Origin: Hypoxylon rubiginosum
Lineage: Eukaryota > Ascomycota > Sordariomycetes > Xylariales > Hypoxylaceae
Assembly: GCA_902806565.1 (NCBI GenBank)
Contig: CADCXA010000021.1
Span: 372,001 to 436,000, forward strand
Direction of reading: 5' to 3'
Length of the DNA: 64,000 nucleotides
Part shown: positions 13,337-36,164 of the stretch, piece by piece
How the letters are laid out: each line of letters opens with the position of its first letter
Position numbering within the stretch: the stretch's first letter is position 1
The notes under the pieces: model-generated
What the model was told of the DNA's origin: nothing
What the model saw: the letters and a program-made list of their open reading frames with translations, nothing else
Databases searched by the model: none
Position numbers and translations under genes: made by a program

Positions 13337-15140
13337 TCAAGTCTCGAACTGCTGCCTTCCGCGGTCCGTCCGCTGCAGGCTCAGCTCCCTGGTCAGCAGC
13401 GACGTCAGGAGCCCGAACCCGGAGAACCCGAGCATGGCGTAGAAGATGCCGCGCGTGGACGTGGTGTAGGCCTCCAGCACGGGGGCCACGACGTCGGCGG
13501 GGAGGTCCAGGGCCCGCAGCTGCGGGACGAAGGCGACGGCGTTGTGCGGGTCCCGGAGCGCGCCCAGGGCGTCGGGCAGCTCGCCGACGGCGGCGATGGC
13601 GGCCCCGAAGAGGCTGTTGAACACCGTCGAGGCGATCGCGAGGCCGACGAGGCCGCCGAGGCACCGGAACGTCAGCAGCAGCGCGATCGCGTGGCCGGTG
13701 TCGTCGACGCTGGGCACGCTCGCCTGCATGGGGAGGTGGAGGAGACGCAGCAGGGCGCCGATTCCCGCACCCCATATCATGGGGATACCGTAGCGCATAC
13801 CCGCAGACGAAGAGGAGTCGAGTGTGATCAGAAGACCCGTGCCCAGCGTTATTAGGAACCAGAACAGCCAAATTCGCGGCCTGTAGCCCATTCCGGCCTT
13901 TCCGATCGCAACCACGGAACCGATTGCGGCCACAACGCTAATGACGCTGGTGGGTAGCAGCGAAACTGCCGACGTGAGCCGGGTATCAAGCATAACGGCT
14001 TGATAGAACAGAGGTATATATTGCAGTAGCGTGAATAGCGACATCCCGTGTATGAAAGCACCGCATAGCGTCACTATTGCCGTCCGAGTCCGCAAGATGT
14101 GGTGCGGCACGACCGGCGCTTCGGGTTTGGCTTCGTATACCGCGAAGACGACAAGGAGGGCGGCGCCCAGGAGTAGCGGAAGGATTGTTTGGTACGAGTT
14201 CCACGGGTATAGAGCGTCGGCCCAACTCAGGGGTAGAACGAATAGGGTGCATCCGGCTGCGAACAGTGACATGCCGCCCCAGTCTAGACGCTTCATCTTG
14301 GCCTGGAGCGATGAGCTAAGAGGGCGTAAACGGAGGAAGAAGGCTAGTAACGGAAAGGCAACACCGAGTAGCGGTAGGTTTATCCAACCTATCCACCGCC
14401 AAGTAACGTAGTCGCTGAAAAGAGCGCCGATGGTTGGTCCGAGGATGCTGCCAATGGCAATGGGCAGTGCCATGATTCCCAAGTAAAGCGGGCGTTCCTT
14501 CAAGGTGGTCATGTCGGATACGATGATCTCGCCGAGGACATCCAGACCGCCGCCACCTAGGCCCTGGATAACACGGCCGGCGATGATGGCGGCCATGTTC
14601 TGGGCGAGGGAGAAGGTGAGAGCGCCGGCGGTAAAGAGTAGAAAGCCGACATAGAGAGGTGGTTTGCGGCCAAAGACGTCGGATATGCTCGCGTATAGGG
14701 GCTGGCCGACGACGAGGCCCAAAAAGTACGCGATTCCCGCCCAAAACGACTCCAGAGTTGTGCCATGAAGCTCGTTTGCGATAGCCTAGCAGATGTCAAT
14801 ACAACCATGGTCTCACAAACCTTGCCGGAAATTGGACGTAAATAGGGGGAAAAGGGGTCACACGACTACTTACCGGAATAGCTACGGCAACTGAAGTAGA
14901 GTCTAGAGAGAATAGGAAGACTAAGATATTAATGGCGAAGAAGGAGAGGTAGAAACCGATAGGCTTTTTGTTGTTCGTCGTAGCATCATCGGTTGCGTCG
15001 GCTGCCATCTCCATCTCGATTCCTTCAGGATCGCTAATCTCACTAGGTCGATTCTCTCTAAGATCCATCTCAGGGCCCGATATCTTGGGTTCAGTAGAGG
15101 GGGATTCTCTCCCATTTGAATCTACGGCGGCGTTTATCAT
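13337..15140 (-). CDS. MFS drug/metabolite exporter of the cluster
   Basis: The predicted protein has 571 aa in two exons: 15140-14874 and 14785-13337 (88-bp intron). A longer frame begins at a TTG (15242), but the first ATG is at 15140. Many hydrophobic helices are present. The first loop carries the MFS motif A (SDVFGRKPPLYVGF), followed by GRVIQGLGGGGLDVLGE. Together with the length this points to the multidrug-type exporters that often sit in fungal metabolite clusters, here probably pumping out the amino-polyketide or protecting the producer. The first ~55 residues are hydrophilic and cytosolic. A CGG-N3-CCG site at 15458 lies 318 bp before the start. The 3' half-kilobase is unusually G+C rich. 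Export of this cluster's product is inferred from position. Confidence 0.88.
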
Positions 15141-16060
15141 ACTTGTATATGAATAATCGTCTCCGTAACGTCGTAGTCCAATATTCCGGATATGGGCAGA
15201 GTTGGTAGCTGTAAGCACAGCTAAGCGGGGGTCAGATCCCAATCGTGCCGGCGAAAGCGATTGGACTGCGATGAATCTGTTAGGTCGTGACAGTCAGTCA
15301 ATTCGGCATTGATGCTACGTATTCTCATCAACGTAAAATTTTGAATAGGAACGACGCATTTGATTTTAACGATGATTATTGAAATCTACACAATTGACGA
15401 ATTTTCTATGTCCACCGGCGGCCTCATACCGTAGGTAGATTACTAGGATATAAGAGACGGGACCCGACCCGTCGGATAGTTCTCAGGGGCAGGCTCATTG
15501 TCCAAGATCCACATCTCTCTCCAACGGCACTTCGTGATATGCCTCTTACGGCGGTAGTCCAGGGCAAATTAGTGGATCTGTCAGCTAAAGCTAACCTTAT
15601 TATAGCGGTCTTCAGCCCTACGCTAGGCTACTGTTTGGAGATGCTCTTAAGCGAGATTAATCGGTATTAAGGTATTAAGGTATGACCTTAAGCCCGAGCA
15701 TTTTCCCAGACTTCCATATTTCCACCTCGAGAACCAACTCTGGGTTTCTTCCAACTCTCGTTTTTTGACTGAGGTTCTATTCTGTGCCGCAACCCTCGAC
15801 TTGACACGTCATCTATCCTGACACCATATAATCGAGGAGTAACTTGGCAGAGGCCTCCTATATAACATGGCATCTGGATTCAGTTACCGTAGATTCTAGC
15901 TCGGTAAAGACACCCATAATACTGCACCGAGACTTAGCTGTAGCTACCTCGCTGAGGTGTACTTGAACAACACCCCTACAGGCTACCATGATTCCATCCT
16001 CGTCCCCAAAACGTCAGGAGATGTCTAGAAAATAGGAGAAACGACCCCCGGCAATCTCGG
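15141..16060. other. Promoter region of the MFS gene and 3' end of the P450 gene
   Basis: No coding sequence is supported. The notable element is a CGG-N3-CCG palindrome at 15458-15466, listed separately. The rest is ordinary AT-rich spacer. Confidence 0.55.
15458..15466. promoter_or_regulatory. Candidate Zn2Cys6 operator (CGG-N3-CCG), MFS promoter
   Basis: The sequence is CGGGACCCG, 318 bp upstream of the MFS start codon. CGG triplets in inverted orientation are the classical contact sites of dimeric Zn2Cys6 regulators. The same 3-bp spacing recurs in the P450, AOS/SDR and PKS promoters. Confidence 0.5.
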
Positions 16061-17879
16061 TTAGGTTTGTTTCTCTTCGAGCAGCTTGAGCATCACATGC
16101 AAACCATACACAGGCGCCAGTGTAATCGCGCCACCAGGGACGACATCCTTCTCATCCATGTCCAACTGCCATTCGAAACGAGAAACCATGGCGGCCACGA
16201 GACACCTCAGCTCGGCCTTCGCAAAGTTCTGTCCAATACACGCCCGCGGACCGTGGAGAAAGCTCAGGAACTCGTAGTTGCTACTGGCACCGCCGGTGTT
16301 GTTTGGACGCCCGTCCTTCTCGATCCAGCGCTCGGGTCTGAACTCGGCCGCACTTGCGCCCCACAACGCGCTTGACCTGTTGATCACCCATGGTGACACC
16401 AGGATTTCGGTGCCTTTAGGGATCGGCTGTCCGGCTAGAAAGGTGTCTCGAGCCGCGATCCGAATGGTGACGGGGATACTTGGGTACAGGCGAACGGTCT
16501 CGTTAATTACTCCATTGAGATATGGTAGACGCTCTAGGATGCCGGAGATATCCAATTCGTCGCTTACAGTGCCTCCCATGGACCCAAGTGCTTCACGGAC
16601 TTCGCTACGTAACGTGCTCTGCCGAACCGGGTCAATGGAAAGCAGATAGCATATCCATGTCAGTGCAAGTGCTGATGTATCATGGCTGCAGACAGATGTC
16701 AGTCTTTTTGTGCATTCGGAAGCGGTTTTTAATCTCATCGGAACACACTCACCCAGCTGCTAAATACGTAAGAAGCTGATCGCAGAGATCGCTATCGGAG
16801 AAGTTCTCAGACTGTATGAGGAGTGACAGTATGTCGACATTTTCGCCCTCGTTCTTTCGTATCGCCTCGCGTTTATCCCGAACGAGCTGGCTGCAGATTC
16901 GTTTCAGCGCCACCATTGCTTGTTCGAAGACTTGATTCTTTTTCCAGGGGAGCATCCGAACCAAACGGACAGAGAACCATGCAGATAGAACGAAATATAG
17001 GAGCATCTGCTTGCTCGGGTTGAAGATCGTTTCATAGTGTTCCACTAGGGGATCATCGGAATTCTTGAGCACGTTGAAGTCACGCCCTAGGCCGGCCATA
17101 CCAATAATATTCAGAGTGACCTTGCTCGCCCAGCGGGTGATCTCAGCCTTTCCCTTCGGCGGGTTACTGCTCTCATCAGCTTCAGCTTCAGCGCTCTGCT
17201 GCCGAATATCCTCCGCCAACGCTTCCGTAAAAGCGATGGAATTTTTCCAAATCATAGGATATAAGCCTTTAACGCGGCGGAAACTAAAAGCGTTCAGACT
17301 ATTTTTACGGAAGAACTTGTGCTCATCTCCTTCCGTAGTGACAAGCCCTTTACCTAGAACGCTGGCAAGGAACTTGCGCATGTTCTGAGGCTTCTCAAAG
17401 TCATAAGAATTATGCACGAGTAGGTCGGCAAGCACGTTCGGTGCTGTAACCAATAAACGGCTATCGGTAACCTCCCTTAGAGCTACAAGACCATCGTTCG
17501 GGATATCCTGGATTATGTCTAGCAATAGCTCAGCCTGTGTTGCCTTTCCAGCCAGTCGAATGTAGATCATCCGAGGTAGCCACCACTGCAGTTCACGCGT
17601 TAACACGAGGTTCTTAAATTCATCAACGGACATAAAGAAAATGTGTCCACAGACCTTGGGCCTTGGGATGTTTCGTAGAGGGCTTATAAAATCGGGATAT
17701 ATTATCGCGGAGTACACAAATAGGAGCCCATAGTTGATGGTGAAGACCAAGGACACCAACTTGACAAACCCTAGGGAGTACGCGTCGGCGATATCCTCAG
17801 GTAAAACTTTGATAATAAGGGCTGACTCAATCGTAGCGATGAGTGTGACACCTTGCAGGCTGAATATTGACGAAGCCAT
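16061..17879 (-). CDS. Cytochrome P450 monooxygenase of the cluster
   Basis: The predicted protein has 583 aa in two exons, 17879-16753 and 16685-16061, with a 67-bp intron that splits the I-helix motif. Joining them restores AAGHDTSALALTW, the oxygen-activation helix. The ExxR motif is ETVR (438-441), the PERW motif follows, and the haem loop FLHGPRACIG (518-527) carries the ligand Cys525. The N-terminus has two hydrophobic segments (about residues 8-26 and 37-60) and a Pro-rich hinge (PLRNIPRP), as in ER-anchored P450s with a double anchor. The likely role is hydroxylation of the polyketide or of the amino-ketone product, as P450s do in fumonisin- and sphingofungin-type pathways. The site of oxidation cannot be predicted. 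Two copies of CGGGTTCCG lie in its upstream region. Confidence 0.92.
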
Positions 17880-18747
17880 CCTTAAGATATGTTAACACTA
17901 AGCGCCGAAGAGCTCTTTGGTCTTGTCTTGGATTCCTAGCTTCAAAACTTGTTGAGGACGTGAAAAATATTTACGGTCTATTCTAAGAGGAATCGTGCCC
18001 AACGTTACGGCCACTATATCACTATTTCGCATCGGTCATCGGTGAAAGATGTGCGCAAATCAACCCATGCTACCACTACCACGTCTTCCGGATCACCCCG
18101 CTATAGCGCTCCTCTGTGCCCAAGAATATATGCGGTGGGATCCTTCAGGAACTGCCTAGTCATGAGTTGAGATATCTATTCTAGGCAGGGCTAAAACGAA
18201 CCTGAACGATGATCTGCCAACGTCTTATAGGAACATAAGAAGAGGCTGAAATTTGACGTACAAAGGAGTATATGCTGACATAAATACCTAAGTAGTGATA
18301 TACGCTTTGAAAGATCTAGAAAAGCCTGACAGCTCATAAGATTTGATGTTGACTTACTATGCTATATTCTAGAAATAGACGTCGGGTCCCGGGTGCCTGC
18401 ATTAGCCCTTCCTAGGCTCTCGCTAGCTGCGCTAGATTCCGTGAAGCCATCGCCTATCGTCCCATCGTGGGATGAAGGATAAAAGATGCTGTGCCGCAAT
18501 GTCAAAAGAACCCCGCCTTAAACGGGTTCCGTGTCGTACAGTACCGGGTTCCGCGTAGCTAAGTCTTTCTAATGTAATAAACGAAGTTATGTCTTAAACA
18601 ATGCTATCTTTTAATCAAACGGTTAGCGAAGAAAAAAAGGGCTACACTGATCATCAATCATCAACAGCCCTGTGTACTAAGCTTTCAGCTGGTAATACTT
18701 TATTTCGACTCTTTAAAATACCAATATTACGTTATTTACCGCGTACT
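17880..18747. other. P450 promoter and 3' end of the AOS gene
   Basis: No gene is seen. The region carries two copies of the nonamer CGGGTTCCG (18523 and 18545), listed separately, closer to the AOS stop codon than to the P450 start. Confidence 0.55.
18523..18553. promoter_or_regulatory. Two tandem candidate operators CGGGTTCCG
   Basis: Two exact copies of CGGGTTCCG occur at 18523-18531 and 18545-18553, 22 bp apart start to start, which puts them on about the same face of the helix. They lie about 650 bp upstream of the P450 start. The motif is the exact reverse complement of CGGAACCCG in the AOS/SDR divergent promoter. Confidence 0.55.
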
Positions 18748-20283
18748 CTAGACATCAGCCATCATAGCATAGATCTGCTGCGCAGCCTTAGGAATCTTCG
18801 ATTTGCTGTCGCCCCCCTTTTCGATGTCGATCATCTCCTTGGCCCACTCGCAAATAGAATTCGCCAGCAGCTCTACCTCAGCCTCGGTATTCGCTGCGTG
18901 GAACATGAGTCTGATCCTGCTCTGACCCTTCGGAACTACAGGATAGTCGATAGGGAAGGCCGAGATTTTTGCCAGTTGTAGGTGGAACACCAGCCAGAAG
19001 TTGTATCGCTGCCGCGTCCACACGGGCACGATGTGCGTCACGAAGTCGCGAAATTCCCAGTTGTCGCTGACAGGGATGGAGAGAATGCCCATGTCGTTGG
19101 CCTCATCCCAGATTTCGTTTGATGTTATCGTCGTTAGAAAGTGCTTGACCAGATGCTGGATCTTCTCTTGAGACTAGACGACGTGTTAATTCCATGTCCT
19201 TGCGATGAAGATATTTGGCAGATAGAAGTCAGGAAGAGAGATGTATTTCGTACCTCTTGTGTTGCGCCCGTCTTTAGCAGATTATACGCTGCCCGAATTG
19301 CGGCGACTGCTGGGAACGAGGGTGCGGTGGTGTAAATGACGGATCGCGCGAAATTCATCAGCGCTAACCTGACAGATTGGTTCCCAAGAATGACGGCTAG
19401 AAACTATAAGCGAATGCCAGACCCAAATATAGAATAACGTTAGGATCTTACCCCCTGAAGAGGCGAGTGCCTTTCCGAAAGTATGGAGTCGGATTGCAAT
19501 CTCATTTTGAAGTCCCAGCTCACATATAAGACCAGCACCGTTCGGTCCTATTATGCCAGTGGCGTGTGCTTCGTCTACAATGAAGACCGCGTTTCCTTTC
19601 GTACAGACTTCTTTCGCGATATCAATTAATTCCTCTATCGGGCAGACGTCTCCATCCATGCTGTATATCGACTCAACAGATATAAGCACGGAGCGTGACC
19701 CGTCCCTAATCAGGGGCTGCGAGTCCACGACGGAGGCTATCGTGTCTCTAAAAGAATCGACATCGTTATGGCGGAAAGGCATCTTGCAGAGCGCTAAGCT
19801 ATGCGCCATCCCGTCGTGCGTGCTCGCGTGGACGAGTTCATCGTAAACAATCGCGTCACCCGGCCTCGGGATGGAGGCGAAGATAGCACCGTTGGCTTCG
19901 TAGCCCGAGTTCAGAATCAGAGCGGTCTCCGCGCCGTGGAAGTCGGCTATCTCCTGTTCCACCTTTTCGATGTAGTCATAGTTTCCATCCATGAGACGAG
20001 ATCCTCCCGCATATAGCCCAAAATTGGGATTACGCGCAAGCTCCTCTAGGAACTCGGTACGCAGCTGTCCGGTTGCTCCTAGGGATAGCAAGTCGTTGGA
20101 GCAAAAGTCGATGGCCTCACCGGTCTTCCACGTGCTCTGTGTCCTTGTGGCCATCGCATGGTCGGCCCTTCGAACATCAAGAGCCTCCTCGAGGTTTCGA
20201 TAGAAAGTGGGGGCATCCTTCATCCGAGGGGCCTTTAGCTTCTGGGCCTTCATCCACGTTGCCAGGAAAGCTGGGGTCGCCAT
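18748..20283 (-). CDS. PLP-dependent alpha-oxoamine synthase (8-amino-7-oxononanoate synthase / Fum8-like class II aminotransferase)
   Basis: The predicted protein has 466 aa in three exons: 20283-19452, 19396-19254 and 19173-18748 (introns 55 and 80 bp). A longer frame starts at a TTG (20352); the first ATG is at 20283. Signature residues of alpha-oxoamine synthases are present: the PLP-stacking His in DELVHAS (His152), the Asp and His of DEAHATGIIG (Asp237, His240), and the Schiff-base lysine in HTFGKALASSG (Lys271). The enzymes condense an acyl thioester with an amino acid, losing CO2, to give an alpha-amino ketone. In a PKS cluster this would release the chain from the ACP, as Fum8 does in fumonisin synthesis. 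It is about the size of a stand-alone AONS. It is divergent from the SDR at 20635, sharing a 351-bp promoter. The amino-acid substrate is not known. Confidence 0.9.
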
Positions 20284-20634
20284 CTTGAGCAGTCGAACTG
20301 AACAGGGATGTGTTGATGTTTTGCGGGCATGCGGCACGGTTGTGCGGCGCAAACAGATTGGGGATCTGATGTTGTGATACTCTGTTTAGTTCAGACTTTC
20401 CAACAGCTAAGCCTCGCTATCAGGCGGATGCATTCTATTGACTTATCTGATCCGATTCGGCTCTGGGTTACATTCGGGGGCGGAACCCGACCAGGATCGT
20501 GGACAAGTTGACGATGCGATTGGCTGTTGTTAACGTCCCACTTCTCAGTGCTAAAACTTCGTGAATCCAGAAGGTCGGCTTACGTTGGTTAGATTGCCCC
20601 GGAATTGCATGTGTTGAAGAGCTGAAGCTATATC
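20284..20634. promoter_or_regulatory. Shared divergent promoter of the AOS and ketoreductase genes
   Basis: This 351-bp spacer separates two divergent genes predicted to act in succession. It contains two inverted CCAAT boxes (ATTGG at 20357 and 20519) and a strong palindrome, TCGGG-N7-CCCGA at 20474-20490, inside which lies CGGAACCCG. One control element could therefore switch both genes together. Confidence 0.6.
20474..20490. promoter_or_regulatory. Candidate operator in the divergent promoter
   Basis: A perfect 5-bp inverted repeat TCGGG...CCCGA with a 7-bp spacer overlaps CGGAACCCG (20481-20489), a CGG-N3-CCG site. It is the reverse complement of the two sites at 18523 and 18545. A near copy, CGGGTTCCA, occurs in the first intron of the SDR gene at 20684. 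Confidence 0.55.
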
Positions 20635-21848
20635 ATGGGGTCTGCGAAGAGTCTACACGGAAAGGTGAGGAAGTCCCTGTGATCGGGTTCCATGAAGGAA
20701 GATTGTAACCTACAATTGTACTGACGTTCTGAGCAGACCGTCTTTATCACGGGGGGCTCTGGGGGGCTGGGGAAAGCAATTTCAAAGGAGTTAGCTACAC
20801 GAGGTTAGTTGTATTACTCTGATATCCCCGTCTCTATGATACTGACTAAGACAGGTGCTCATATTACGATATTTGCACGTAGACAAGGTCCTCTCGATGA
20901 GGCCAAGAATGAAATACTGGCAGCTCGCTTGAATGAAGACCAGGATGTCAACGCAGTATCATTGGATCTAGCCGATGCTTCTAAGGTCATACTACCTGCC
21001 TTAGTTTACAGGAAGATGACAACTGACTGAACGACCAGGTCGACGAGGCGTTCAGGGCCCAGCCCCGAATTCCAGATATCTTATATTGCTCAGCTGGTGG
21101 CAATCATGCTGAGAATGGATTCCTTGCAGATATCGAGGCCAGTGACATTGAAAACTGCATGAAAAACAACTATTATTCATCGGCCTACGCAGCTAAGTCA
21201 GCCATTGATATATGGACTGCGGATGACAAGAAGGGCGGTTCTCAGAGTGCCCAGCCACGGCTTCGCCAGATCATTTTCATCAACAGTGCCGCCGCATTTC
21301 TGGGCATACCAGGCTCTATTGCCTATACACGTACGCCCCTGATACTTCATTTGACTTGAGGAGGAGAGCTAACTTTAGCCCCTGAAGCCGCTAAATGCGC
21401 CGTTCGTGCGTTAGCGGATACCCTAAGGATGGAAGTTCTTCGATACAATAGTCCGGCCTCTACCTACACCATCCATTGCGCGTTCCCAGCTGACTTCGTC
21501 TCTCCTGGGTTCATCCTAGAGCAGAAGACGAAGACGCCGTTGACCAAACGCATTCAAGGTCTAGACCGCCCTTATGAGGAACTCGAAGGACGTTTTCCCT
21601 CTTCCGAGAAGGTCGCCTCGCTTACTATCGCGGCGGTGGACCGAGGCGAGTTCATTATCTGCGAGGACTCGTTCGCGGCCTCGGCTCTCTTCACCAACAT
21701 GACCGGGCCATCGCCGAAGAGAGGTTTCGGAATAATCGACTCTGTAATGGGTCTACTGGTTGGATGGATCGTCTGGCCGGTCTTGAGACGAAGATGGGAA
21801 ACCATGTGTAGAGAGGATGGCGAAGAGTCTAGGAAACGGGCGGAATAG
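20635..21848 (+). CDS. 3-ketosphinganine-reductase-like short-chain dehydrogenase (Tsc10/KDSR/Fum13 type)
   Basis: The predicted protein has 326 aa in five exons: 20635-20664, 20737-20803, 20855-20985, 21039-21330 and 21388-21848. The NADPH loop is TGGSGGLG (15-22), the NAG-type motif is CSAGG, the catalytic Ser lies in INSAAAF (Ser159) and the YxxxK motif is YTPAK (Tyr172, Lys176). A C-terminal hydrophobic segment (about 289-305) followed by basic residues looks like a membrane anchor, as in 3-ketosphinganine reductases of the ER. The predicted role is reduction of the ketone left by the neighbouring alpha-oxoamine synthase. Intron 4 has two possible in-frame acceptors nine bases apart; only the downstream AAG gives the YxxxK motif. 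Confidence 0.88.
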
Positions 21849-22384: not shown

Positions 22385-25300
22385 ATGAGCGTCAACGGGC
22401 ATCTCGTTGCCAATGGGCCTAAGCTCAATGGTGAAGCTATGGCCAACGGTTCGAATTCGAAGATGAATGGAAGCGGGGATCTTTCCAATGGTGTCACAAC
22501 CAACGGCGGTGCTACAAACGGGACTTCCACTAATGGATGGTTAAAGAACGGCGACCATGCCAACAGCCATCATGTCGCCAATGGCGTCAATGGTACTACT
22601 GGTACTACTGGCGAGGGCGCCATGCCGATCGCCATCTGTGGAATGGCTCTTCGTCTCCCCGGAGGATTGACGACGCCGCAGGAGTTTTGGGAGTTTCTAC
22701 TCGCCAAGGGAGACGCACGATGTCGAGTCCCCAAGTCTCGATACAACATTGATGCCTATTATTCCCCTACTGGAAAGCCGGGAACCGTTTCAACAGAGTA
22801 CGGATGCTTCCTCGATGAGAGCGTGGATCTAGGAGCTTTGGATACCTCGTTCTTCACAATGCCGCGAACAGAAGTGGAGCGTGCAGATCCACAGCAGCGG
22901 CTGCTGCTAGAAGTTGCGAGAGAATGTTTCGAGGACGCCGGCCTCACTAACTGGAGAGGGAAGACGATAGGTTGCTACGTAGGAAACTTTGGAGAGGACT
23001 GGCTCGAGATGTTTGCAAAGGAGCATCAACAATGGGGCATGCATCGAATAGTTGGCACTGGGGATTTTGTTATCTCCAACAGGCTGTCGTACGAGATGGA
23101 TTTACGTGGACCAAGGTATGTTCGCAAGATATGACCTACCTCAGCCTATTCTAATTGTTGCAGCATGACGCTTCGTACGGGTTGCTCGGCAGCACTGGTT
23201 GGCCTGAACGAAGCCTGTATGGCAATTTCTCGAGGTGACTGTGAAGCTGCACTAATCGGAGGTGTCAATCTCATTCTGTCACCAACGATGACTACGGCCA
23301 TGACAGAACAAGGGATCGTCTCAAAGGATGGTTCATGCAAGACCTTTTCAGCCGATGCTAATGGATATGCCCGTGGTGAAGCAGTGACGGCCATTTTTGT
23401 TAAGCCCCTGAGTGATGCTATCAGAGACGGCAATCCGGTGCGGGCGGTTATTAGGGCGACCTCCCACAATGTTGATGGAAAGACTCCTGGAATGTCACAG
23501 CCGAGCACCGACGCGCAAGAGGCTCTAATGCGGAGAGCATATAAGGTTGCCGGTATAACGGACTATTCGCAGACCGCTATGGTAGAATGTCATGGTACAG
23601 GCACACCAACTGGCGATCCAATCGAGGTTAAGGCAGTTGCTCGAGTATTTGGAGAGTCTGGTGTTTATATCGGATCAGTCAAACCAAACCTCGGCCATTC
23701 AGAAGGGTCATCCGGGCTGGTATCAATAATGAAAATGGTTCTAGCCTTGGAGAATCGCACCATACCACCCAACATTCGATTCACGTCCCCTAACCCAAAG
23801 ATCCCGTTTAAAGAGGCAAAGCTTACGGTTCCTGTAGAACCTACCCCTTGGCCAGCTGAGAGGCTTGAACGTGTGAGCGTGAACTCATTCGGTGTGGGTG
23901 GTGCGAATGCCCATGTAATTCTGGATTCTGCTGCCAGCTTCAATGCGTCGACTATATCACAAGATGCGCCCACGACACCCCAATTACTATTGTACTCAGC
24001 AAACAGCGCAAAGTCGCTTACGAAGATGATTGCTATTTATAAAGATTGGGTGGAAAAGCATCCAGAAAAGGTCGGCGATCTGGCCTACACATTAGCTTTG
24101 AGAAGAGAACATCTGCCTCACCGAACGTTTACCATCGTTAATAACGGTATAGTCGAGAACGCGTCACCGCCTACGAAATCCTCCCAAAAGCTCAACGTCG
24201 TAATGGTATTTACCGGCCAGGGGGCTCAGTGGCCGCTCATGGGCAAGGAATTACTGCAATCTAACGAAACCTTTAGATCTTCTATTCGTTCACTGGATCA
24301 GCATTTAAAGACCGCGTTAGGAGATGCGCCTCCCTACTCCATAGAAGAGGAGCTTCTCAAGCCTGCTAGAAAGAGCCGACTTAACGCCGCCGAACTATCC
24401 CAGCCACTCTGTACAGCCGTGCAAATTGCGCTTGTCGACACCCTCAGGGTCTATGGAGTTACGCCTAGTGCTGTTGTTGGCCACTCAAGTGGTGAGATCG
24501 CCGGAGCTTATGCTAGTGGAGCTCTTACAGCTGAAGAGGCTATCATTGCGGCTCACCATCGCGGTGCGGTAACATCGAAGCAAAAACGACCAGGATCAAT
24601 GGCAGCTATAGGAATGAGCTGGGAAGACACCGAGAAACACCTAATTCCTAATGTCACTATTGCCTGTGATAACTCACCCAAAAGTGTGACGATTTCAGGA
24701 GATACGAAAGACGTTAAAGCAGTGGTTGCCGCCATCAAAAAGTCTCGCACAGACGTATTAGCCAGATTACTCCAGGTCGATAAAGCATACCATTCGTACC
24801 ATATGGCCGAGATTGGGGAGGATTACCTTTCATTAATCGGACAGCAGGTATCCGGGAAAGAGCCTACCATCCCTTTCTTTTCCAGTGTAACGGGTAAGCT
24901 GTTGAACGGAGAACGCGGCCTTGGGTCCAAGTATTGGAAGAGCAACCTAGAGTCTCCGGTCCGCTTTAAGGAAGCTGTCACTGCCCTCCTGCAGCACGAG
25001 ATTGGACAGAACGCGGTCTTCCTCGAAGTTGGGCCGCATTCGGCCCTCGCAGGCCCTTTAAGACAGATATTCACTGAAGTTTCCTCGCCCGCCCCCTATG
25101 TCGCAGCGATGGCGCGCAATCAAAATTGTATATCATCACTTTTTACTGCTATTGGAAAACTTCATTCTCTCAATGTTGCGGTCGACCTAGAGGCGGTATT
25201 TCCAAACGGCTCGTGTCTTCCGGATTTGCCTCGATACCCATGGAACCATGAAGACAGCTATTGGTATGAGCCTCGAATCTGCAGAGAATGGCGCCAGCGG

Positions 25301-28300
25301 AAGCACCCCTATCACGACTTATTAGGAGCCCGATCCCCCGAAAGCTCGGATATTGAACCTGCGTGGCGAAATCTGTTCCATCTTGCTAACGCACCCTGGA
25401 TTCGCGACCATAAAGTCGGGGATGACGTGATATTTCCATTCGCTGGCTACATTGCCATAGCCGGAGAGGCTGTGAAGCAAATAAGTGAAGTCGATGAGGG
25501 ATTCAGCATTCGAAATATTATTGTTAGTATGGCGCTCGTTCTGGCCGAGGGAAAACCTACGGAAATGATGACCACCTTCCGCCCGCATCGCTTGACGACT
25601 TCTCTTAATAGCCCGTGGTGGGAGTTTACTATATCCTCGTTCAACGGTCATGTATGGACGAAGCATTGTTGGGGAGAGGTAACAGCCCTGTCGTCGAATC
25701 TGGGGCCGGCGCAGGTGGATGCCCCTGGTGATCTTCCTCGAAAGGTGAATGCACGAAAGTGGTACGAGACTATGCGGAAGTCCGGCCTGGATCTTGGGAC
25801 GTGTTTCCAGACGCTTGACACAATAGAGACCTCGACCAACTCAGAGAACCGTGCTATCGGAAAGGTTATTAACGGCAGGCAAGGGGACGAAGCGAATTAC
25901 CATATCCACCCTACCGTCATCGATGGCACGCTGCAAATAATGAGTGCTGCCACCGTGAATGGCTATGCGCGCAAAGTCAAGAATTGGCTCCCGACTAGCA
26001 TTGACAAACTCAGCATTATTCGATGCTCCTCCGATATGGTCACGGATGTTTCGGCAAAGGCGACAAGCAACCACTCAATCGTCGGTCATGGACACTGCAC
26101 TTCTGAGGGCCTCACGGTTATAGAAGCTTCTGGTATTCGGATGTCCCCAGCAGATGGTGCACTCTCGAGCGACGTGGCCGATACCCATGCCGCAGCTCGA
26201 TACGAATGGCGTTCCGATATAGACTTCTTAGACATTAAGGAACTGATTCGGCCGCCACCGGATCGTGCACCTCATATCGCTCTCCTGGAAGAGCTTGGTC
26301 AGCTTTGCATGTTATCATCTCAACGAGCGCTTTCTGTATCGGAGACACACCTAAGCCATATAAAGAAATACTCAGAGTGGATCACCTCTCAACCATTTCC
26401 AGAAGAGTTGATCAAATTAGACGAAGAATCCTTACGTACCCGAATCGATGGTTTGGTTGCACGTCTCTCCAAGACTCCAGCAGCATGCGCAGCTACCGCC
26501 CTCCATCAAATTTCGGCGAAAACAGATCTCATATTATCAGGCCAGACTCTCCTCGACATATTATCGGACGATGCCCTGGCATCACTTTACGAATTCATAG
26601 ACCAGTCTGACGTATCCAAGTTTATTCAATACTTGGGGCACTCGAAACCGAATCTGCAAATCCTAGAGCTCGGGACAGGAAGAAGTTCATCAGTGACTGA
26701 TGTACTCAAGAGCCTTGCTCGACCTGACGGTCAAATTTTATGTTCTAAATACACATTCACTTCAACAGGTTTTATTTCCGGCAAGGACCAGCAGAAGCCA
26801 TTCCCCAATATGGAGTACGCGACCTTGGACATTAGCAAGGACCTTGAGGAACAAGAATTCGAGGGCCGCCAGTACGATCTCATCATCGCTTCAAACGCCG
26901 TGCACGTAACCAAGGACGTCCAGGAAAGCCTGAAGAATATCAAGAAGCTTCTCCGTCCCGATGGCCGATTGCTGATGCAAGAATTATGTCCATCCTCAAA
27001 GTGGATCAATTACATATTCGGAGTGTTACCAAGCTGGTGGTATGGTAGTGCTGACGGTAGACCCAACGAGCCTTATTTCGACGTGAAGGGGTGGGAATCC
27101 GAACTGCTAACCGCGGGATTCGGGAGTATTGAGGGAGTTACCCTAGACTCGGACGAACCACATCAACTAACAACACTTATGGTCGCAAGACCTTCTCAGA
27201 CCACGCAGCCTTCGCCGAAACGGGTAGCCATCCTATGTGGAGAGGAAGACAACAGTGGTAGTAGTCAGGTTATCGATCAACTTGTGAAGGAAGGTTACGA
27301 GATTACAAAGTGTAGAATCGAAGAGTCCCCGCCACCAGGACAGGACGTCATCTCTTTTCTCGACGTATCGGGGCCATATTTTGAGGGAATGGACTGTGCT
27401 CGTTTTGAGACATTTAGACAATTCCTGCGCAACCTCGGCGGTTCTGGTATCTTATGGATCACACCGCTTTGCCAAATCGGCTGCCAGGATCCTAGATATG
27501 CTCAAGTTATCGGGTTAGCGAGGACGATTCGCTCTGAGATGCTGATAGACCTCGCCACATGTGAGGTTGACGACTTCAGCGCAGCGGCAAATCAAATTAC
27601 CCAAGTCTTTACCAAATTCCAGAGGCGTGATGACGACGATGTACTCAAGCCCGATTTTGAGTACGCGATCCAAGGCAAGAGCATACAGGTTGGAAGATTA
27701 TACCCCTTCGCCTTGCGAGACGAGCTCTTGGTTTCAGAGTCCAATGATAAGGCCATCCTTGACGTCGGCACGCCGGGACGCCTCAACACTCTACACTGGG
27801 TCCGGCGACAGCGTGAAGATATTCGCAGCAATGAGGTCGAGATTGAGGTACACTCTGTTGGTTTGAACTTTAGGGTAAGTCTCTTTTCTTATATTGTGGG
27901 ATGATTGCTGACAATTTCTACGAAGGACATTCTGGTCGCGATGGGCATAGTTGAACTTCCGAAACGTGAACTCGGGCTTGAGGCAGCTGGTATTATTACC
28001 CGCGTAGGTGCCGATGTGAAGAACCTCAAAGTGGGCGATCGCGTCTGTTGCTTGAAGAATCAAGCGTATTCCACCTACCTTGTCTCCCAAGACATTTATT
28101 GTGTACGGATTCCAGATCGCCTGAGCTTCGATGAGGCCGCGTCAATGCTCATGCCTTATGCCACTTCCATTCACTCTCTAGTAAATATTGGGCGTCTTGA
28201 AAAGGGCCAGGTAAGCAAGTCCATTCCCTCGCTTGTCTCCTGCTAATTACTTATGATTTAGTCGGTCCTAATACATAGTGCATGCGGCGGAGTCGGCCTG

Positions 28301-30127
28301 GGAGCTATCCAGGTATGCAAAATGTTAGGGGCTGAAATTTACGCGACTGTCAGCAACGAGGAGAAAGTACAATTTCTGGTCGAGAACTTCCAAATCCCGA
28401 GGCATAGGATATTTAACTCACGAAATAGCTCATTCGTCGAGGGTGTCATGCGCGAAACTAAAGGGGAGGGTGTCGACTTGGTGCTTAACTCTCTTTCAGG
28501 AGAACTTCTGCACGCTACTTGGACCTGCGTGGCTGAGTTCGGCACGATGTTGGAAATTGGGAAGAGAGATCTAATTGGCAACGGAAAACTCGATATGAAC
28601 ATATTTTTGGCCAATCGCAGCTACAGCTGCGTTGATATTGATAAGCTCTGGAAGAAGCCAAGGGTAATGTCGAAGTAAGTTTCATGGCGAGACTGATCAG
28701 TTCTAAAGCGAGTTCATACGACTAACCCATTGTGTAGCCTGATTCGAGACACTATAGAGTACTACGACAAGGGGTTCACGACCTCCGTTCAACCCCTGAA
28801 GATCTTCCCGGCTTCCGAAGCTGCTGATGCGTTCCGTTATATGCAGAAGGGACAGCATATTGGCCGGGTTGGCATCTCGTTGCGAAGTTTTGTCGAAGAC
28901 CGTGATACCCACTTTAACATTAAGAAGAGGTCTCGACCTATAAACTTCTCTAGCACAGCGTCTTACCTCTTAGTCGGCGGTCTCGGCGGACTTGGCCGTG
29001 CAATCTCTTCGTGGATGGTCGATCATGGCGCCCGTGAATTGATTTACTTGTCGAGAAGCGCTGGCGCAGGAGCACAGGATGATGTTTTTGCCAACGAACT
29101 GAAGAGCATGGGTTGCGAGGTTAAGTTCGTGAAAGGAGATGTTACGAAACCCGACGACGTCGCCAAAGCAGTTGCAGCAGCTTCGAGTCCATTAAAGGGG
29201 GTGATCCAAATGTCGATGGTCCTTCGCGACCAAAATTTCGAGGCTATGACAATCGACGAGTGGAACGTGGTGGTCGCGCCCAAAGTTCAAGGGACCTGGA
29301 ATCTTCACAATGCTACTATGACTACAGGAGCCGACCTGGACTTTTTCGTGCTATTCAGTTCCCTATCAGGGATAATCGGACAACCGGGTCAAGCGAACTA
29401 CGCCAGTGGTAACACATTCTTAGACGCCTTCGCACAGTATCGCAATGGGATGGGCCTCGCGGCGTCCGTCGTGGATATCGGGGCGGTCGAAGACATCGGT
29501 TTCATATCACAACATCACGGGTTGATGAACAAGATGAAATCTAGCGGGTTTAAGGGCGTCACGGAACAAGAGTTACTCGACGCGATGGCAGTGGCAATGG
29601 CTCCTCGGGCGACTAAGAAGATCGAGACCGGCGATTCTCGGTTCGTCGACGGTAGCACGTTCGTGCTTGGACTGGGCTCATCGATACCGCTTAGCAGCCC
29701 CAACAACCGAGCTACATGGAAGAAAGACCGGCGCATGGCCGCATACCACAACGCATCGACCGGCAGCGGGGACACGGCCTCGTCGAACGAGACCCTGAAG
29801 ACGTTCCTGGCGACCGTCAAGGGCGACCCGTCTCTCCTGAAATCGGCCGACTCCTCCAAGGTGCTCGCCCTCGAGATCGGGAAGAAGCTGTTCGACCTGC
29901 TCCTGAAGCCGCAGGAGGACCTGAACACGTCCTGGCCGCTGGTGGACCTGGGCCTGGACTCGCTGGTGGCGCTCGAGCTGCGCGCCTGGTGGAAGCAGGT
30001 CTTCTCGTTCGACATCAGCGTCCTGGAGATGCTGGGGATGGGCTCGCTGGACGCGCTGGGGCAGCACGCGGCGGAGGGCTTGCTGAGGGTTATGACGGAG
30101 GACGGCGAGCAGAAGGGGGCTGAATGA
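22385..30127 (+). CDS. Highly reducing type I polyketide synthase (KS-AT-DH-cMT-ER-KR-ACP)
   Basis: The predicted protein has 2509 aa in five exons: 22385-23115, 23164-27874, 27926-28210, 28262-28674 and 28738-30127. After an Asn/Gly-rich tail (1-78) the KS has Cys251, His387 and His422. The AT carries FTGQGAQW and GHSSGE (nucleophile Ser685). The DH has [10 protein letters not shown] (His993) and Asp1164. A methyltransferase region lies at about 1290-1530 but its glycine loop is LELGTGRSS, lacking the third Gly of the usual motif. The ER has HSACGGVG (1914-1921). The KR has GGLGGLG (2127-2133) and a catalytic Tyr in QANYASGN (2268). The ACP has DLGLDSL (Ser2455). No thioesterase, reductase or condensation domain follows. 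It would build a long reduced acyl chain on the ACP for capture by the alpha-oxoamine synthase, as Fum1 does with Fum8. The final 430 bp are markedly G+C rich. Confidence 0.95.
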
Positions 30128-30585: not shown

Positions 30586-30662
30586 GTAGATAAAGAATGT
30601 CCTTTCAACGGAATATAGGAGACAAGTCTTGGTTCTAATTGGCCTGGAAAGCACGTGGTAGG

Positions 30663-30740
30663 GCAGGAAGCGCAGGAAGCGCAGGAAGCGTAGGAGCTGC
30701 AACCCTTTATCACATGGGACACATGGGAACACATGGGAAC
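30663..30740. repeat. Two adjacent minisatellites
   Basis: GCAGGAAGC occurs three times in perfect tandem at 30663-30689. Shortly after, ACATGGGAC and two copies of ACATGGGAAC run in tandem at 30712-30740. Neither is in a gene. Confidence 0.85.
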
Positions 30741-32406
30741 ACAACAGACCCGATATGGCGGATCACCAATCTTAGCTTGACTGGGTGGTGCCCCGGTCCC
30801 CCAACGGGCCGCGCGGGTCGTATATGTAGGATCGGGACTGCGTATCTATGCTTCTGATACGTAAGCTGAAATCATCGCGGTACTTGTCGCAGGTATACAT
30901 CATGATTGGCTCTTGAGCGCTCACCTTGTTCGCCTTCGGGCGGCTTTAATTGCCAAACGCGAAGCAAACATGCGAAAGGGGCTATTGGATTACCATACGA
31001 TGCCAAAAGAAAGGAAGCCAAGTCGCAACGCAGCGACCCCAATCCTTCGGGCCGAGACTCCCTTTTAGGGGATTCGAGCCGTTGATTGCCTTTAGGATTG
31101 ACTGTCGTCGCTTTAAACTTACCACCGATGCTCCCTTTTCACCGGCACGTAACGTTTCTAGGACGGGGCGCCCGGCGCCATATGCACCCGTTGGTTTGGA
31201 TTTGTGTCACAGAACAACACACGATAACCGGGTTTTGTTAATTAAGCGTCACATTTTGGACTTGTTCGTACATAGGACTTCATCGACTCTGTCGACCTCG
31301 CGATCTAACCGCGGCACGATCCGGAGCGACATCATCGCGAGTTGGCATTTTCCATGATTGGTTAGTGAGTGCGGGGTTGTCTACGACGTAGCAGTACGAG
31401 AAATGGTCGTTAACATTCGTCAGGGGCTTGCATGGATGTAGGGCCGAGGCTCCAATGAGACGTTTTTGTTCGAGTTCACCGAGTCCTAATAAAAATAGGA
31501 TTGGTCTGGGCCAAAGTCGCTTGTAGTTGGGTGTCATCGAATTCAACCGAGTCCTACGTGACTATGCCATCATTAGGGTTGCACCGCAGGTAGGCTGATG
31601 GCTGAGTGTACTGATATCTTGAGAATCATGACTAATAGGCGTTCGCAGCCGAGAAGAATGCTCACGATATTTTACAACAGGTCATATATCAGGCGAACTT
31701 GGGCAATTTTTCATTTTTTTTCGTACAGTCGATCAAAGGAAGAAATCTCCGATTTGCTGATGGATTATCGTGTCAAGGCAGCTCTTATGGACGCATGTGA
31801 TCTCAGATCCAGTTATCGATGGGAATTGGGCTCCGTGCCTCTATTATACGTCGGGTAAACAAGCCTAGCTGAGTAAGAATCATGCAATGCAGCTCAGAGG
31901 TATCTATTACCGGTGTGAGGCATCTGGCTTTCAGCTTGAGAGCTCAAGAAGCTTGGGACATGCGAATCCTGCACTGTAGGCCCTGCTCAACGCGTCCCGC
32001 TAGCAGGGGGTCTACCTATGATCGTATTCCAAACATCGAAAGGCGGGACTTGGGGGCCGTGGAAGAGCTGGAAGAGAACTTCTGTTTGCGTAGTATCCAA
32101 GGATTTAGTGGGAGGACTAGTAAGCATATCGAATCAGACGTGCCAGATCTCTGCCGACTTAAGATAGGGCTTGCTGGCACAGATACATGGCTTTAATCCC
32201 ACGCCGCCCACGGCATGCAGACTCAAGGTTGTCAAATGGGGCCGGGAGATCTGGCCATAGGAGCAATAAGGTTGCTAGTCTTTGGACCCCAAATCTCGCT
32301 GATTATTAACGAGTTTGGTACTTTTTGTTATCAAACTCATTTTTGAGATGAGCGGTGTTCGTCTCATGTCAACATACGCGGCCGTAGGGTGCCCGTTTCG
32401 TTGAGT

Positions 32407-34990
32407 ATGGCTTCAGAAAAGCGTGCTCGGACGCACGAAGAGGTAATGTCCCACGACGATACCAACTCTTGTAGAATCTACTTGATGGGAACTAAGCCGG
32501 TTCTAACTAGATATCCAAGGAGACGAGCGGAAAAGATTACGCAGGTGAGCGGGGAACACCAAGGGTTTCAGCTACGTTAGACGCGAATTGGAATTCGCTA
32601 ACGCCGGCAGTGTGCGATCAATGCCGGATCAAGAAGATACGATGTGGGAGAGAGAAGCCTTTCTGCTCCAACTGTACGCGTCTTGGGCACAAGTGCGAAT
32701 GGTCTGGGAATGGCAAGAAGTGCAATCAAACAGCCCTCCTGTAAGAATTTCACCAGAGAACGGCTGTATTGCGCAGCTAATATGTGAAAGGAGCCACACC
32801 ATCGAAGGAATGAGTAGGCGGCTCGAAAGTCTGGAGGTATGCTGATTATCTTCCTTTCATTCTACGTATCAGCCACATGAGCTCATCACCTCTGAAGGCT
32901 GCATTGGCGGAAACACAAGATACAATAAAACGGCTCGTCTCGGGAACATCAACTTGCAAGGACGCTTTCGCAACACTCCAGCCCGCCCACAATTGGCCTA
33001 CTCCCGAGGAAACCACATCTACATTGCACGAGACGGCGGTGTTCAAAAGACCTCTTGGCCACTTTCTCCGGAGTCATGATGTCGAAGGTAGTGAGAGGTA
33101 CTTTAACCCTACGTCGCTAGAATCTCTCATGTACGACATTAGAGACCTCTTCCTCGAACCCCTTGTGAACGGCGGATCTGAGAGTCAGAGCGTGAGGGAA
33201 TGCGCTCTCCTGGCACAACATAAACTTGATGATCTGGTATCTCGAAATGATGAAATCGTTCGAAATGGCGCGCCTCCTACGGCGCCCCCTATTTCAATCT
33301 TAAAGGCAATGATCGAGCCGTATTTCGCAACCGTCAACCCACACTTCCCCATCTGGACCGAGGAATCCTTCATGCGAATAGCTACGGCGTTGCAAGAAAC
33401 TAACCACGTTAACCAAGACCTAGGGCTAGTCGTATGTTCTAATAATTTAATCCTTATGACTTTGGCGGCGAACCTTTCGCAGCCTCCTTCTCACCAGGAT
33501 AAGTCAAGAGAGTTTAGGCTGGCACGCAATGGGTCGTCTATCAACCTGGACCTTATGAACGGTTTCCTTGCAAACGCAAAGAGAGCCATCGAGTACGCGG
33601 AGCTTCTACTCTCGCCTCGTCTCGTCAATGTGCAAGCTCTTCTATCACTTGTATGATACCATGCACCTTTCCATACGTGGGCCTCGAAGTGCTGCTAACA
33701 TACAATAATGAAGTGTGTGGTAGCGCAGGAACACATGTCTCCGAGCGTCTTCGCAAGGCTATTCAACTTGACTGCTCAGTGCGCAAAGTCCATCGGTGTC
33801 CATGATTGGGAAAGATGCGCCCTAGGACTAGAGGGGGGCGAGGGTGCTCGTGAAAGAAAATGTTTATCTTATTGCTTATACATCCTCGACAAGGTAGTTT
33901 GCTCGACCGCCGGCACGTCCCCTTACATACCAGCATCCGACGTGCACATTGGCACTACTACGGCGTCATACGATGATATAATTATGAGCGATTTGGTGGC
34001 CAAAGCAAAGTTAGCTGAGATCCAAGAGACGATATACCTGGAAGTATACGCACGCCGAGCTCCGTCAAGGACCGCCGAACAAGTCCAACTGCTCATTTCT
34101 AAACTCGACCAGAGGTTACACGACTGGCTGGTATATTCGGGTGTTGATCTAGCGGATATAGACACCGATATTTCTCTAACCTCTGCTTCGAAGATCGAAC
34201 TATCTATCGGATTCACGTGTACGCAGTTATTATATATGCGGCCATTTAAGGAGCACCATGAAATCTCATTTCAGATCATAGAAGTCGCTAGAAGGGGCAT
34301 GAGGCTCCTGTTGCATCTATGGCGCTCTGCAGCAGAGTTGGAACACCAAGGGACTCTTTCGCGGTTAGTATTTCCCAATTATTTGACCATCAATTTCCCG
34401 TTTAACCTGATTATTGTAGCATTATCGCGTCTCACCCGCCTCTATATCTTTTTGAGATTTGTGCATACGTGCTTAGTGGCGAAGGACAGGATCCAGACGT
34501 AAAACTACTGCAATCCTTTACTGAGATGCTTCATGATGTTGCCGACTTGCGAGCAGATGAGTCACATAACCACCGCTTATACGAGGCATGCACGACCATC
34601 ATGGATGTTATAACTGCAATAAAGAACCAACATAAGAGACGAAAATTGCAGCATACCTCTTCATCGTTAGCGTCGTCTCAGGTATCGTCAATAGAGACGC
34701 AACGCCTATTTCCTTACAGCCCCTCCTCAGATGTACCGCCTAACAATAACGACAACAACTCATCTCCACGAGCTCAAGGTCGGAGCCAAGTCACTGAGGG
34801 CTTGGCCGCCTCCAATTTTGAGCCGTTGATGTCCCCGACAAACTCCAGGGGTTGCCCAGAAGACGAACTCGCAACGATAATGGGCCCTCTGGGAAAGGGT
34901 CCATTCGAACCGTTTGATCTTCTCGGGTATAGTGCGACTCATATATCGAGAGGCGAGAGCCTCATTGAGAAGGACCTGTGGTGGGATTGA
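32407..34990 (+). CDS. Zn2Cys6 transcription factor, candidate cluster regulator
   Basis: The model has 750 aa in six exons: 32407-32470, 32572-32740, 32791-32836, 32898-33650, 33714-34363 and 34420-34990. The DNA-binding cluster has six cysteines at 36, 39, 46, 53, 56 and 63, the canonical C-x2-C-x6-C-x6-C-x2-C-x6-C spacing, with the basic stretch RIKKIRC. A short linker and a coiled coil (SRRLESLEAALAETQDTIKRL) follow, as in dimeric regulators that bind paired CGG triplets. The middle part has the look of the fungal-specific regulator domain, and the C-terminus is Ser/Asn-rich. It lies 2.3 kb after the PKS and is the only such regulator in the window, so control of the cluster is likely but inferred. 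Exon 1 and the first junction are uncertain; introns 2, 3 and 4 use AAG acceptors. Confidence 0.83.
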
Positions 34991-35256
34991 TATGTTGATA
35001 ATCTAGAGTTACGCCTTCTAGAATGAGCAGAGGGCGTGACGCTGGGGTGCTGGTTTAAGGGAGGTTGTTAACGTGGTCATTTCATCCAAGTGACCTTAGC
35101 AAGCAGCGATCTAATGAAGAAAATCCTAATTCCACGGAAGTTGTATGATGACTGTTAATAGTAATAACTCTAATGAAAAATGCATGAGGCCAATTTAGAA
35201 AAGGAGATCCGGATATGAATCATGACCCTTGAATTGGATACGGGATTGGGATACTA

Positions 35257-36164
35257 TCATCCAGATTCATCTACTCTCTCGCCCTTTCCCGGACGCATAT
35301 GTTCTAATATGAATCTCATACTCTCGTTGCAGGGCTCTGGCGGTCCTCTAAAATATACATCGGCGACAAAGATCTCCACGGCGAGACCAACGGTCGACTT
35401 CTCGAATTTCTGCCCCCGAGAGTCCTCGAAGGCTGTGCCGTCAACGAGAGACTCGACCGTGGACGTAACCTTCTCCATCTGGGTTAGATATTCTTGCGGA
35501 TACGCATCCCATAACTCCTTGGGCAGCAGGTTTGTCCGCACCGATCCAGGACAGATAGCATACGTTCTTATCCCATCTTCATGAAAGATGGGAGCAACAG
35601 AGCGCATGAAATTCAGCATGCCTGCCTTGGACGCTGCGTAAAGAGGCGTGATTGCTTGAGGGTACTAAGAATGTATGAGGTATGGATCGCATGATGTCTG
35701 CCCTTTGACAGGATAATACTCACTATGCCTGCAATACTCGACGTTATAATAAGGACACAGTCCTTGCCGCTATTCGTGTTCGCCCTGAAGTAGTGTTGCG
35801 CAAGGTAACTCGTTCTGATTACTCCCTTGAGATTGACATCGATGCTCAGCTCCTCCGGTTCCGGGAGCGGCGAAGATAGGTCATGCCTCTCGAAGAACTT
35901 CCCGTTTTCCATAATACCGGCGTTTGCAAACACGAAGTCGAGCCGACCTTCATTCTTAAAGACGGCATCGAACGAAGAGGATAGAGAGTCCCAGGAGGCG
36001 ACGTCGACCTTGTGGGAAATGCAGTTGCTCAGACTAGCCACCCCGTCAACTTCGTGTAAGTCGAAAATGTGTACGTGCCAACCCTTCCGGGATAGCACCT
36101 CCACGACGGCAAGTCCTAAGCCTGATGCGCCGCCGGTAATGATGGCTACTTTGGAATTTGACAT
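35257..36164 (-). CDS. Classical short-chain dehydrogenase/reductase, possible tailoring enzyme
   Basis: The predicted protein has 282 aa in two exons, 36164-35724 and 35664-35257 (59-bp intron). It has the cofactor loop TGGASGLG (10-17), an acidic residue after strand 2 (HIFDLHE) that favours NAD(H), NAG at 81-83, the catalytic serine region ITSSIAGI (140-147) and YAASK (Tyr156, Lys160). The layout resembles the 15-hydroxyprostaglandin-dehydrogenase-like branch of fungal SDRs. It is convergent with the regulator, 266 bp apart. It could oxidise or reduce an alcohol on the cluster product, or it could be an unrelated flanking gene. No CGG-N3-CCG site was seen upstream, which argues mildly for the second option. 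Confidence 0.87.

What the first reader, a model, noticed from the sequence alone, without database searches (positions are those of the whole stretch)
13337..36164. Cluster predicted to make a sphinganine-mimic amino-polyketide
Five adjacent genes form a complete minimal route: HR-PKS ending in an ACP, PLP alpha-oxoamine synthase, ketosphinganine-reductase-like SDR, P450 and MFS exporter, with a Zn2Cys6 regulator nearby. This combination is established for fumonisin/AAL-toxin (Fum1, Fum8, Fum13 types) and is shared by sphingofungin-type pathways. The gene order here, with the AOS and SDR divergent and the P450 and MFS on the AOS side, is not one I recognise. No tricarballylic-ester genes (acyl-CoA ligase, NRPS-like or condensation genes) are present, so the product should be a simpler sphingoid-like amino-polyol, possibly new.
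Basis: partly seen in the sequence, partly recalled or inferred. Interest (0 to 1): 0.85.

Follow-up and report, generated by a model that had tools for sequence, protein, structure and literature searches.

The report
Sphingofungin-type gene cluster, Hypoxylon-like fungus
A fungus close to Hypoxylon carries an intact set of neighbouring genes that probably builds a sphingolipid-mimicking amino lipid of the sphingofungin kind; this cluster type is already known from other moulds, so it is a good new member rather than a new kind of pathway.

Summary
The five genes are real, intact and arranged as described: MFS and P450, an alpha-oxoamine synthase (AOS) divergent from a ketosphinganine-reductase-like SDR, then a highly reducing PKS ending in an ACP, with a Zn2Cys6 gene nearby. 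The pathway idea holds, but the kin is sphingofungin, not fumonisin. The AOS scores 732 and 712 bits against two solved fungal enzymes, one named sphA; the next structure scores 146. The genome's likely biotin enzyme lies elsewhere. The PKS is 64% identical to an Aspergillus fumigatus PKS, probably SphB. The AOS-SDR-PKS core recurs in other ascomycetes, and a 2020 survey already named Hypoxylon in its SAM1 sphinganine-analogue PKS tree (PMC7376913). New here: the C-methyltransferase motif is degraded in 69 of 71 PKSs of this clade and intact in 41 of 44 outside it, predicting an unbranched chain; and the genome holds two further PKS+AOS clusters and one AOS+MFS pair without a PKS in 30 kb. Product, head group and expression are untested. 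Verdict: new member of a known kind.

The parts
13337..15140 (-). MFS transporter, 2 exons, 571 aa; putative exporter (SphD-like role proposed)
   Evidence: MFS_1 140.3 bits; model; the same transporter type (47-49% identity) lies near each of the AOS paralogues on C35, C59 and C9
16061..17879 (-). Cytochrome P450, 2 exons, 583 aa, with two hydrophobic stretches in the first ~62 residues (SphH-like role proposed)
   Evidence: p450 143.1 and 60 bits on the two exons; haem motif and N-terminal hydropathy; distant to plant carotenoid, sterol and fatty-acid P450 structures
18748..20283 (-). SphA-type alpha-oxoamine synthase (aminoacyl transferase), 3 exons, 466 aa
   Evidence: 732 bits to 9dos, 712 bits to 9pep 'Aminoacyl transferase sphA'; 93% to Hypoxylon rubiginosum P0002; tree
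20284..20634 (.). 351-bp divergent promoter region between AOS and SDR
   Evidence: model starts
20635..21848 (+). 3-ketosphinganine-reductase-like SDR (SphF-type), 5 exons, 326 aa, with a C-terminal hydrophobic stretch
   Evidence: best PDB hit TSC10 8jat, 76.9 bits (first model); 98.8% to H. rubiginosum P0121 and YxxxK present with the corrected splice site; hydropathy
22385..30127 (+). Highly reducing PKS KS-AT-DH-MT(degraded motif I)-ER-KR-ACP, 5 exons, 2509 aa (SphB-type)
   Evidence: domains; 92% to H. texense, 64% to A. fumigatus P0264; motifs; KS tree
32406..34990 (+). Zn2Cys6 transcription factor, approximate limits, exons not modelled; possible cluster regulator
   Evidence: Zn_clus 35.2 bits; Fungal_trans matches below cut-off
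35257..36164 (-). Second, generic SDR, 282 aa; membership of the cluster unproven
   Evidence: adh_short; model; no counterpart at E 1e-6 in the four other loci read

Best explanation
This is a sphingofungin-type ('SAM1-like') cluster. The PKS builds a highly reduced, unbranched acyl chain held on its terminal ACP. With no thioesterase seen, the chain is off-loaded by the SphA-type PLP enzyme, which condenses the acyl thioester with a small amino acid (aminomalonate by analogy with A. fumigatus SphA; alanine and serine stay open) by decarboxylative Claisen chemistry to a 2-amino-3-ketone. The SDR reduces the 3-ketone, the P450 hydroxylates the product, probably on its tail, and the MFS protein exports it. 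The product would be a sphinganine mimic likely to act on serine palmitoyltransferase. Shown here: gene integrity, family placement, catalytic motifs, the recurring AOS-SDR-PKS core and the degraded methyltransferase motif. Inferred: every reaction, the substrate, the target and the order of steps.
For: AOS 732/712 bits to two fungal structures against 146 for the next. 9pep is named sphA; 9dos is named 8-amino-7-oxononanoate synthase and counted as SphA-type by me. They are near-identical to P. variotii P0029 and A. udagawae P0025. AOS tree: the window in a 51-row clade with both (SH-aLRT 99). PKS 64% to A. fumigatus P0264, 62% to P. variotii P0268, same KS clade (SH-aLRT 94). SDR 63% and 66% to A. 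fumigatus P0166 and P. variotii P0150. Of 47 named AOS hits, 24 share a contig length with a typed SDR row, 24 with a typed PKS row, 16 with both, 15 with neither. Roles of SphA, SphB, SphF, SphH and SphD: PMC10936153 passages.
Against: No product is known and no expression data exist here. No shared promoter word ties the genes together. No oxygenase other than the P450 and no acetyltransferase was found among 50 scanned ORFs, so full sphingofungin decoration is not in view. P450 orthology to SphH was not tested. The AOS has SGYEAN (SGCEAN in H. rubiginosum) where the Aspergillus and Paecilomyces enzymes have SGSNGN/SGFNGN, so its substrate may differ. A protein named sphA from Aspergillus stella-maris (P0096) falls in a different clade with the C35 paralogue, so the name alone does not define one function. 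Pfam methyltransferase models still match the PKS above cut-off, so loss of activity rests on one motif.
Confidence: 0.82

Rival explanations
1. A fumonisin or AAL-toxin-type pathway (Fum1/Fum8/Fum13) with the ester genes lost.
For: Same enzyme classes; the SDR is closest to the ketosphinganine reductase TSC10, and Fum13 complements yeast tsc10 (PMC10936153 passage).
Against: The AOS is far from the serine palmitoyltransferase chains (at most 108.5 bits against 732); the PKS methyltransferase motif is degraded, whereas fumonisin chains are methyl-branched (recalled). Fum8, a longer protein (recalled), would have lain outside the length limit of the search, and neither Fum8 nor Fum1 was compared directly.
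Confidence: 0.05
2. The AOS releases the chain with alanine, giving a 1-deoxysphinganine-like or cyclised alkaloid product (fungal AOS/HR-PKS alkaloid routes such as curvulamine, recalled) instead of a sphingofungin-like head group.
For: Serine in GGSR, which I take as the position equivalent to ALAS 83; PMC7376913 section 9 reads such a serine as alanine use for SAM1. The SGYEAN motif is unlike the Eurotiomycete enzymes.
Against: The A. udagawae and P. variotii enzymes have the same GGSR serine, while A. fumigatus SphA, of the same family, is reported to use aminomalonate (PMC10936153 passages); so that residue does not settle the substrate.
Confidence: 0.25
3. The AOS and SDR mainly act as extra serine palmitoyltransferase and ketosphinganine reductase that protect sphingolipid synthesis, alongside biosynthesis.
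For: A. fumigatus SphA shows SPT activity in vitro and sphF restores growth of yeast tsc10-1 (PMC10936153 passages).
Against: It does not explain the PKS, P450 and exporter; it is a possible second role rather than the cluster's purpose.
Confidence: 0.1
4. The AOS is a primary biotin enzyme that happens to lie beside a PKS.
For: BioF is its best NCBIfam model (252.7 bits).
Against: That score is far below the family cut-off of 426.45; the genome's likely biotin enzyme sits on contig C53 next to BioA/BioD-like and radical-SAM genes and its pieces are about 27-41% identical to the window AOS.
Confidence: 0.01

Closest known systems
Sphingofungin cluster (sph genes), Aspergillus fumigatus / Paecilomyces variotii
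   Same: SphA-type AOS, SphB-type HR-PKS, SphF-type ketoreductase, a P450, an MFS and a transcription factor; degraded C-methyltransferase motif in the A. fumigatus and P. variotii PKSs too
   Different: No further oxygenase (SphC role) or acetyltransferase (SphE role) found in the scanned ORFs; AOS motif SGYEAN instead of SGSNGN/SGFNGN; product unknown
SAM1-like clusters of Fusarium, Metarhizium and other ascomycetes (Kim et al. 2020, PMC7376913)
   Same: PKS+AOS+SDR core; the AOS clade holds Metarhizium and F. anthophilum rows; Hypoxylon is named in the SAM1 PKS tree
   Different: Fusarium SAM1 carries a dioxygenase besides the P450; none was found here
Fumonisin / AAL-toxin clusters
   Same: Same overall logic of HR-PKS, AOS and 3-ketoreductase
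   Different: AOS far from SPT chains, no ester or acyl-CoA-ligase genes in the scanned ORFs, degraded methyltransferase motif; FUM and ALT proteins not compared directly

Membership tests
Sphingofungin-type (SAM1-like) cluster | SphA-type AOS | tested here: met
   732/712 bits to 9dos/9pep, next 146; tree clade SH-aLRT 99
Sphingofungin-type (SAM1-like) cluster | HR-PKS of the SphB clade, ending in ACP, no TE | tested here: met
   domains; 64% to A. fumigatus P0264; KS clade of 71 of 115 rows. That P0264 is SphB is inferred, not labelled in the output
Sphingofungin-type (SAM1-like) cluster | 3-ketosphinganine-reductase-like SDR in the cluster | tested here: met
   TSC10 is the best structure; intact YxxxK; adjacent and divergent to the AOS
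Sphingofungin-type (SAM1-like) cluster | SphH-orthologous P450 | tested here: inconclusive
   P450 with two N-terminal hydrophobic stretches, as reported in outline for SphH (PMC10936153 passages); no direct sequence comparison made
Sphingofungin-type (SAM1-like) cluster | SphC-type oxygenase and SphE-type acetyltransferase (tailoring, not core) | tested here: inconclusive
   none among 50 scanned window ORFs; a PhyH search of the genome gave no hit inside the window, but the Pfam family of SphC is not known from my calls and short ORFs remain unscanned
Sphingofungin-type (SAM1-like) cluster | Makes a sphingofungin or SPT inhibitor | not testable with these tools
   needs metabolite analysis
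Fumonisin/AAL-toxin cluster | SPT-like Fum8-type AOS | tested here: not met
   SPT chains score at most 108.5 bits against 732 for the SphA-type chain; Fum8 itself not compared, and that it is SPT-like is from PMC7376913 section 9 (class II, with SPT) and recall
Fumonisin/AAL-toxin cluster | Tricarballylic-ester genes (acyl-CoA ligase, condensation domain) | tested here: not met
   no such Pfam hit in 50 scanned ORFs
Primary biotin synthesis (BioF) | Over the BioF cut-off, beside biotin genes | tested here: not met
   252.7 bits against a cut-off of 426.45; likely biotin locus on C53

The most novel reading that the evidence does not exclude
One Hypoxylon-like genome runs several parallel sphinganine-mimic pathways that make chemically different families: an unbranched one from the window cluster, whose PKS methyltransferase motif is degraded, and probably methyl-branched ones from the C35 and C59 clusters, whose motifs look intact. 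All are built around a paralogous AOS+exporter pair. The window product would be an undescribed, sparsely decorated sphingofungin relative with its own head group.
Probability: 0.4. Interest if true: 0.55.

Novelty: new member of a known kind. Interest (0 to 1): 0.36.

Why it matters
Sphingofungins and myriocin inhibit serine palmitoyltransferase (PMC9603476 passages) and serve as research tools and antifungal leads (recalled). A recurring, apparently uncharacterised branch in Hypoxylaceae is a defined place to look for related inhibitors. The methyltransferase split across the PKS clade gives a simple sequence rule (branched or unbranched chain) that metabolite data could test at once.

Tried and rejected
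Primary-metabolism origin of the AOS: rejected. Fumonisin-type filing: rejected on the AOS and the missing ester genes; FUM and ALT proteins were not compared. Shared promoter motif: none; 7-mers in at least 4 of 5 promoters were 3 observed against a mean of 3.05 in random stretches of the window (123 of 300 reach it), longer words none. Residue-83 rule for the amino-acid substrate: not decisive, because enzymes of the same family share the serine while A. fumigatus SphA is reported to use aminomalonate. Ceramide-synthase-type genes (possible self-resistance): hits in the genome, none listed on the window's contig C21. Literature: curvulamine (20 papers) and SphC with dioxygenase (none) gave nothing used. 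'Hypoxylon' with 'sphingofungin' found 2 papers, one of them Kim et al.; two of 'sphinganine', 'Hypoxylaceae', 'biosynthetic gene cluster' found 92 papers, 20 listed, of which PMC8403587 was looked into: its held text has no 'sphing', 'fumonisin', 'myriocin' or 'pyridoxal'. 'Hypoxylon' with 'myriocin' found 11 papers, 10 listed, only Kim et al. relevant by title. No structure prediction or fold search was run.
Full report
What is there. The window is G000:C21:372001-436000 of a 48.3-Mb genome in 70 contigs. Its proteins are closest to Hypoxylon: AOS 93% to H. rubiginosum, PKS 92% to H. texense, SDR 98.8% to H. rubiginosum; the species itself is not named by any search. Spliced models of all five core genes are open from start to stop. 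From left to right: MFS(-), P450(-), AOS(-), then SDR(+), PKS(+), a Zn2Cys6 gene(+) and a second SDR(-). Pfam gives MFS_1, p450, Aminotran_1_2, and KS, AT, DH, MT, KR and ACP on the PKS exons scanned; the ER is read from its motif and from alignment. No thioesterase match was seen in the exons scanned.

What the AOS is. Against solved structures it scores 732 bits with 9dos (named 8-amino-7-oxononanoate synthase) and 712 with 9pep (named Aminoacyl transferase sphA); the third hit scores 146 and the serine palmitoyltransferases at most 108.5. The two chains are near-identical to Aspergillus udagawae P0025 and Paecilomyces variotii P0029. In a tree of 114 rows (short search, SH-aLRT only, long branches flagged) the window AOS sits with Hypoxylaceae and Durotheca (7 rows, 99) inside a 51-row clade (99) that holds those two, Metarhizium and Fusarium anthophilum. 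The C35, C59 and C9 paralogues fall outside that clade, and so does an A. stella-maris protein that its source names sphA (P0096, near the C35 paralogue). The fourth own row, on C53, lies beside BioA/BioD-like and radical-SAM genes and is the likely biotin enzyme.

What the PKS and SDR are. The PKS is 64% identical to A. fumigatus P0264 and 62-63% to P. variotii and Metarhizium. KS, AT, DH, ER, KR and ACP motifs resemble those of 19 relatives. Motif I of the C-methyltransferase reads LELGTGRSSS in place of LEIGAGTGGS. By a simple pattern rule 72 of 115 PKSs are degraded and 43 intact. In the KS tree the clade with the window and A. fumigatus has 69 degraded of 71 (the exceptions are two Annulohypoxylon rows); outside it 41 of 44 are intact (clade support 94; fewest changes on the tree 5). 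A degraded motif suggests, but does not prove, an inactive domain, and Pfam methyltransferase models still match above cut-off; unbranched sphingofungin chains fit it (recalled). The SDR is closest to TSC10.

Is the arrangement unusual? No. AOS, SDR and PKS carry consecutive locus tags in Annulohypoxylon sp. FPYF3050. The lists were capped and only partly typed, and equal contig length says nothing about distance.

Own-genome repertoire. C35 has PKS, SDR, AOS and MFS; C59 has PKS, AOS and MFS, with no SDR hit in the 30 kb read; C9 has AOS and MFS with no PKS hit in 30 kb. The MFS is 47-49% identical to the window's in all three. The C59 PKS pieces are 38-59% identical to the window PKS, the main C35 piece only about 30%. 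The window P450 has no counterpart in these regions at E 1e-6. The C35 and C59 PKS methyltransferase motifs look intact.

Mechanism. In A. fumigatus SphB and SphA make the first intermediate, SphF reduces the 3-ketone, SphH and SphC oxidise, SphE acetylates, and SphD is an MFS transporter (PMC10936153 passages). The window encodes counterparts of SphA, SphB and SphF and plausible ones for SphH and SphD; nothing in the SphC or SphE role was found in 50 scanned ORFs. A lightly hydroxylated, unacetylated, unbranched amino-polyketide is the modest prediction. Kim et al. predicted alanine for SAM1 enzymes from one residue (PMC7376913 section 9); A. fumigatus SphA was reported to take aminomalonate, and serine with palmitoyl-CoA, so the head group stays open.

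What is known. Kim et al. 2020 defined PKS+AT+SDR sphinganine-analogue clusters, tied SAM1-like clusters to sphingofungin, and named Hypoxylon among the genera in the SAM1 PKS tree (PMC7376913 abstract and sections 5, 8, 9, 12, passages); which Hypoxylon strain it was, I did not see. Hence: new member of a known kind. Other papers seen: PMC10936153, PMC9603476 and PMC8403587 (passages only); all others in search listings only.

Noticed in passing
G000:C35:51625-69843 (L038-L039): A second PKS+SDR+AOS+MFS cluster with an intact-looking PKS methyltransferase motif; AOS 84% to a Hypoxylon sp. FL1284 paralogue.
   Followed up: partly
G000:C59:452150-467729 (L041-L043): A third cluster: PKS and AOS divergent, MFS and a cysteine-rich gene resembling a Zn2Cys6 start (no Pfam hit), no SDR hit in 30 kb.
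   Followed up: partly
G000:C9:76759-80407 (L045): AOS of this family next to the same MFS type but no PKS hit within the 30 kb read: an orphan pair or cluster remnant.
   Followed up: partly
window 8927-12682 (+): 1251-aa NB-ARC/TPR NLR-like protein with a weak SesA N-terminal match, left of the cluster.
   Followed up: no
window 42358-44988 (+): HET-domain protein to the right of the cluster.
   Followed up: no
window 37412-40735 (+): 1107-aa open frame without any Pfam match at E 0.01.
   Followed up: no
Annulohypoxylon PKS P0250 and P0252: Two PKSs inside the degraded-motif clade have a near-normal GSGTGS methyltransferase motif; possible retention or regain.
   Followed up: no
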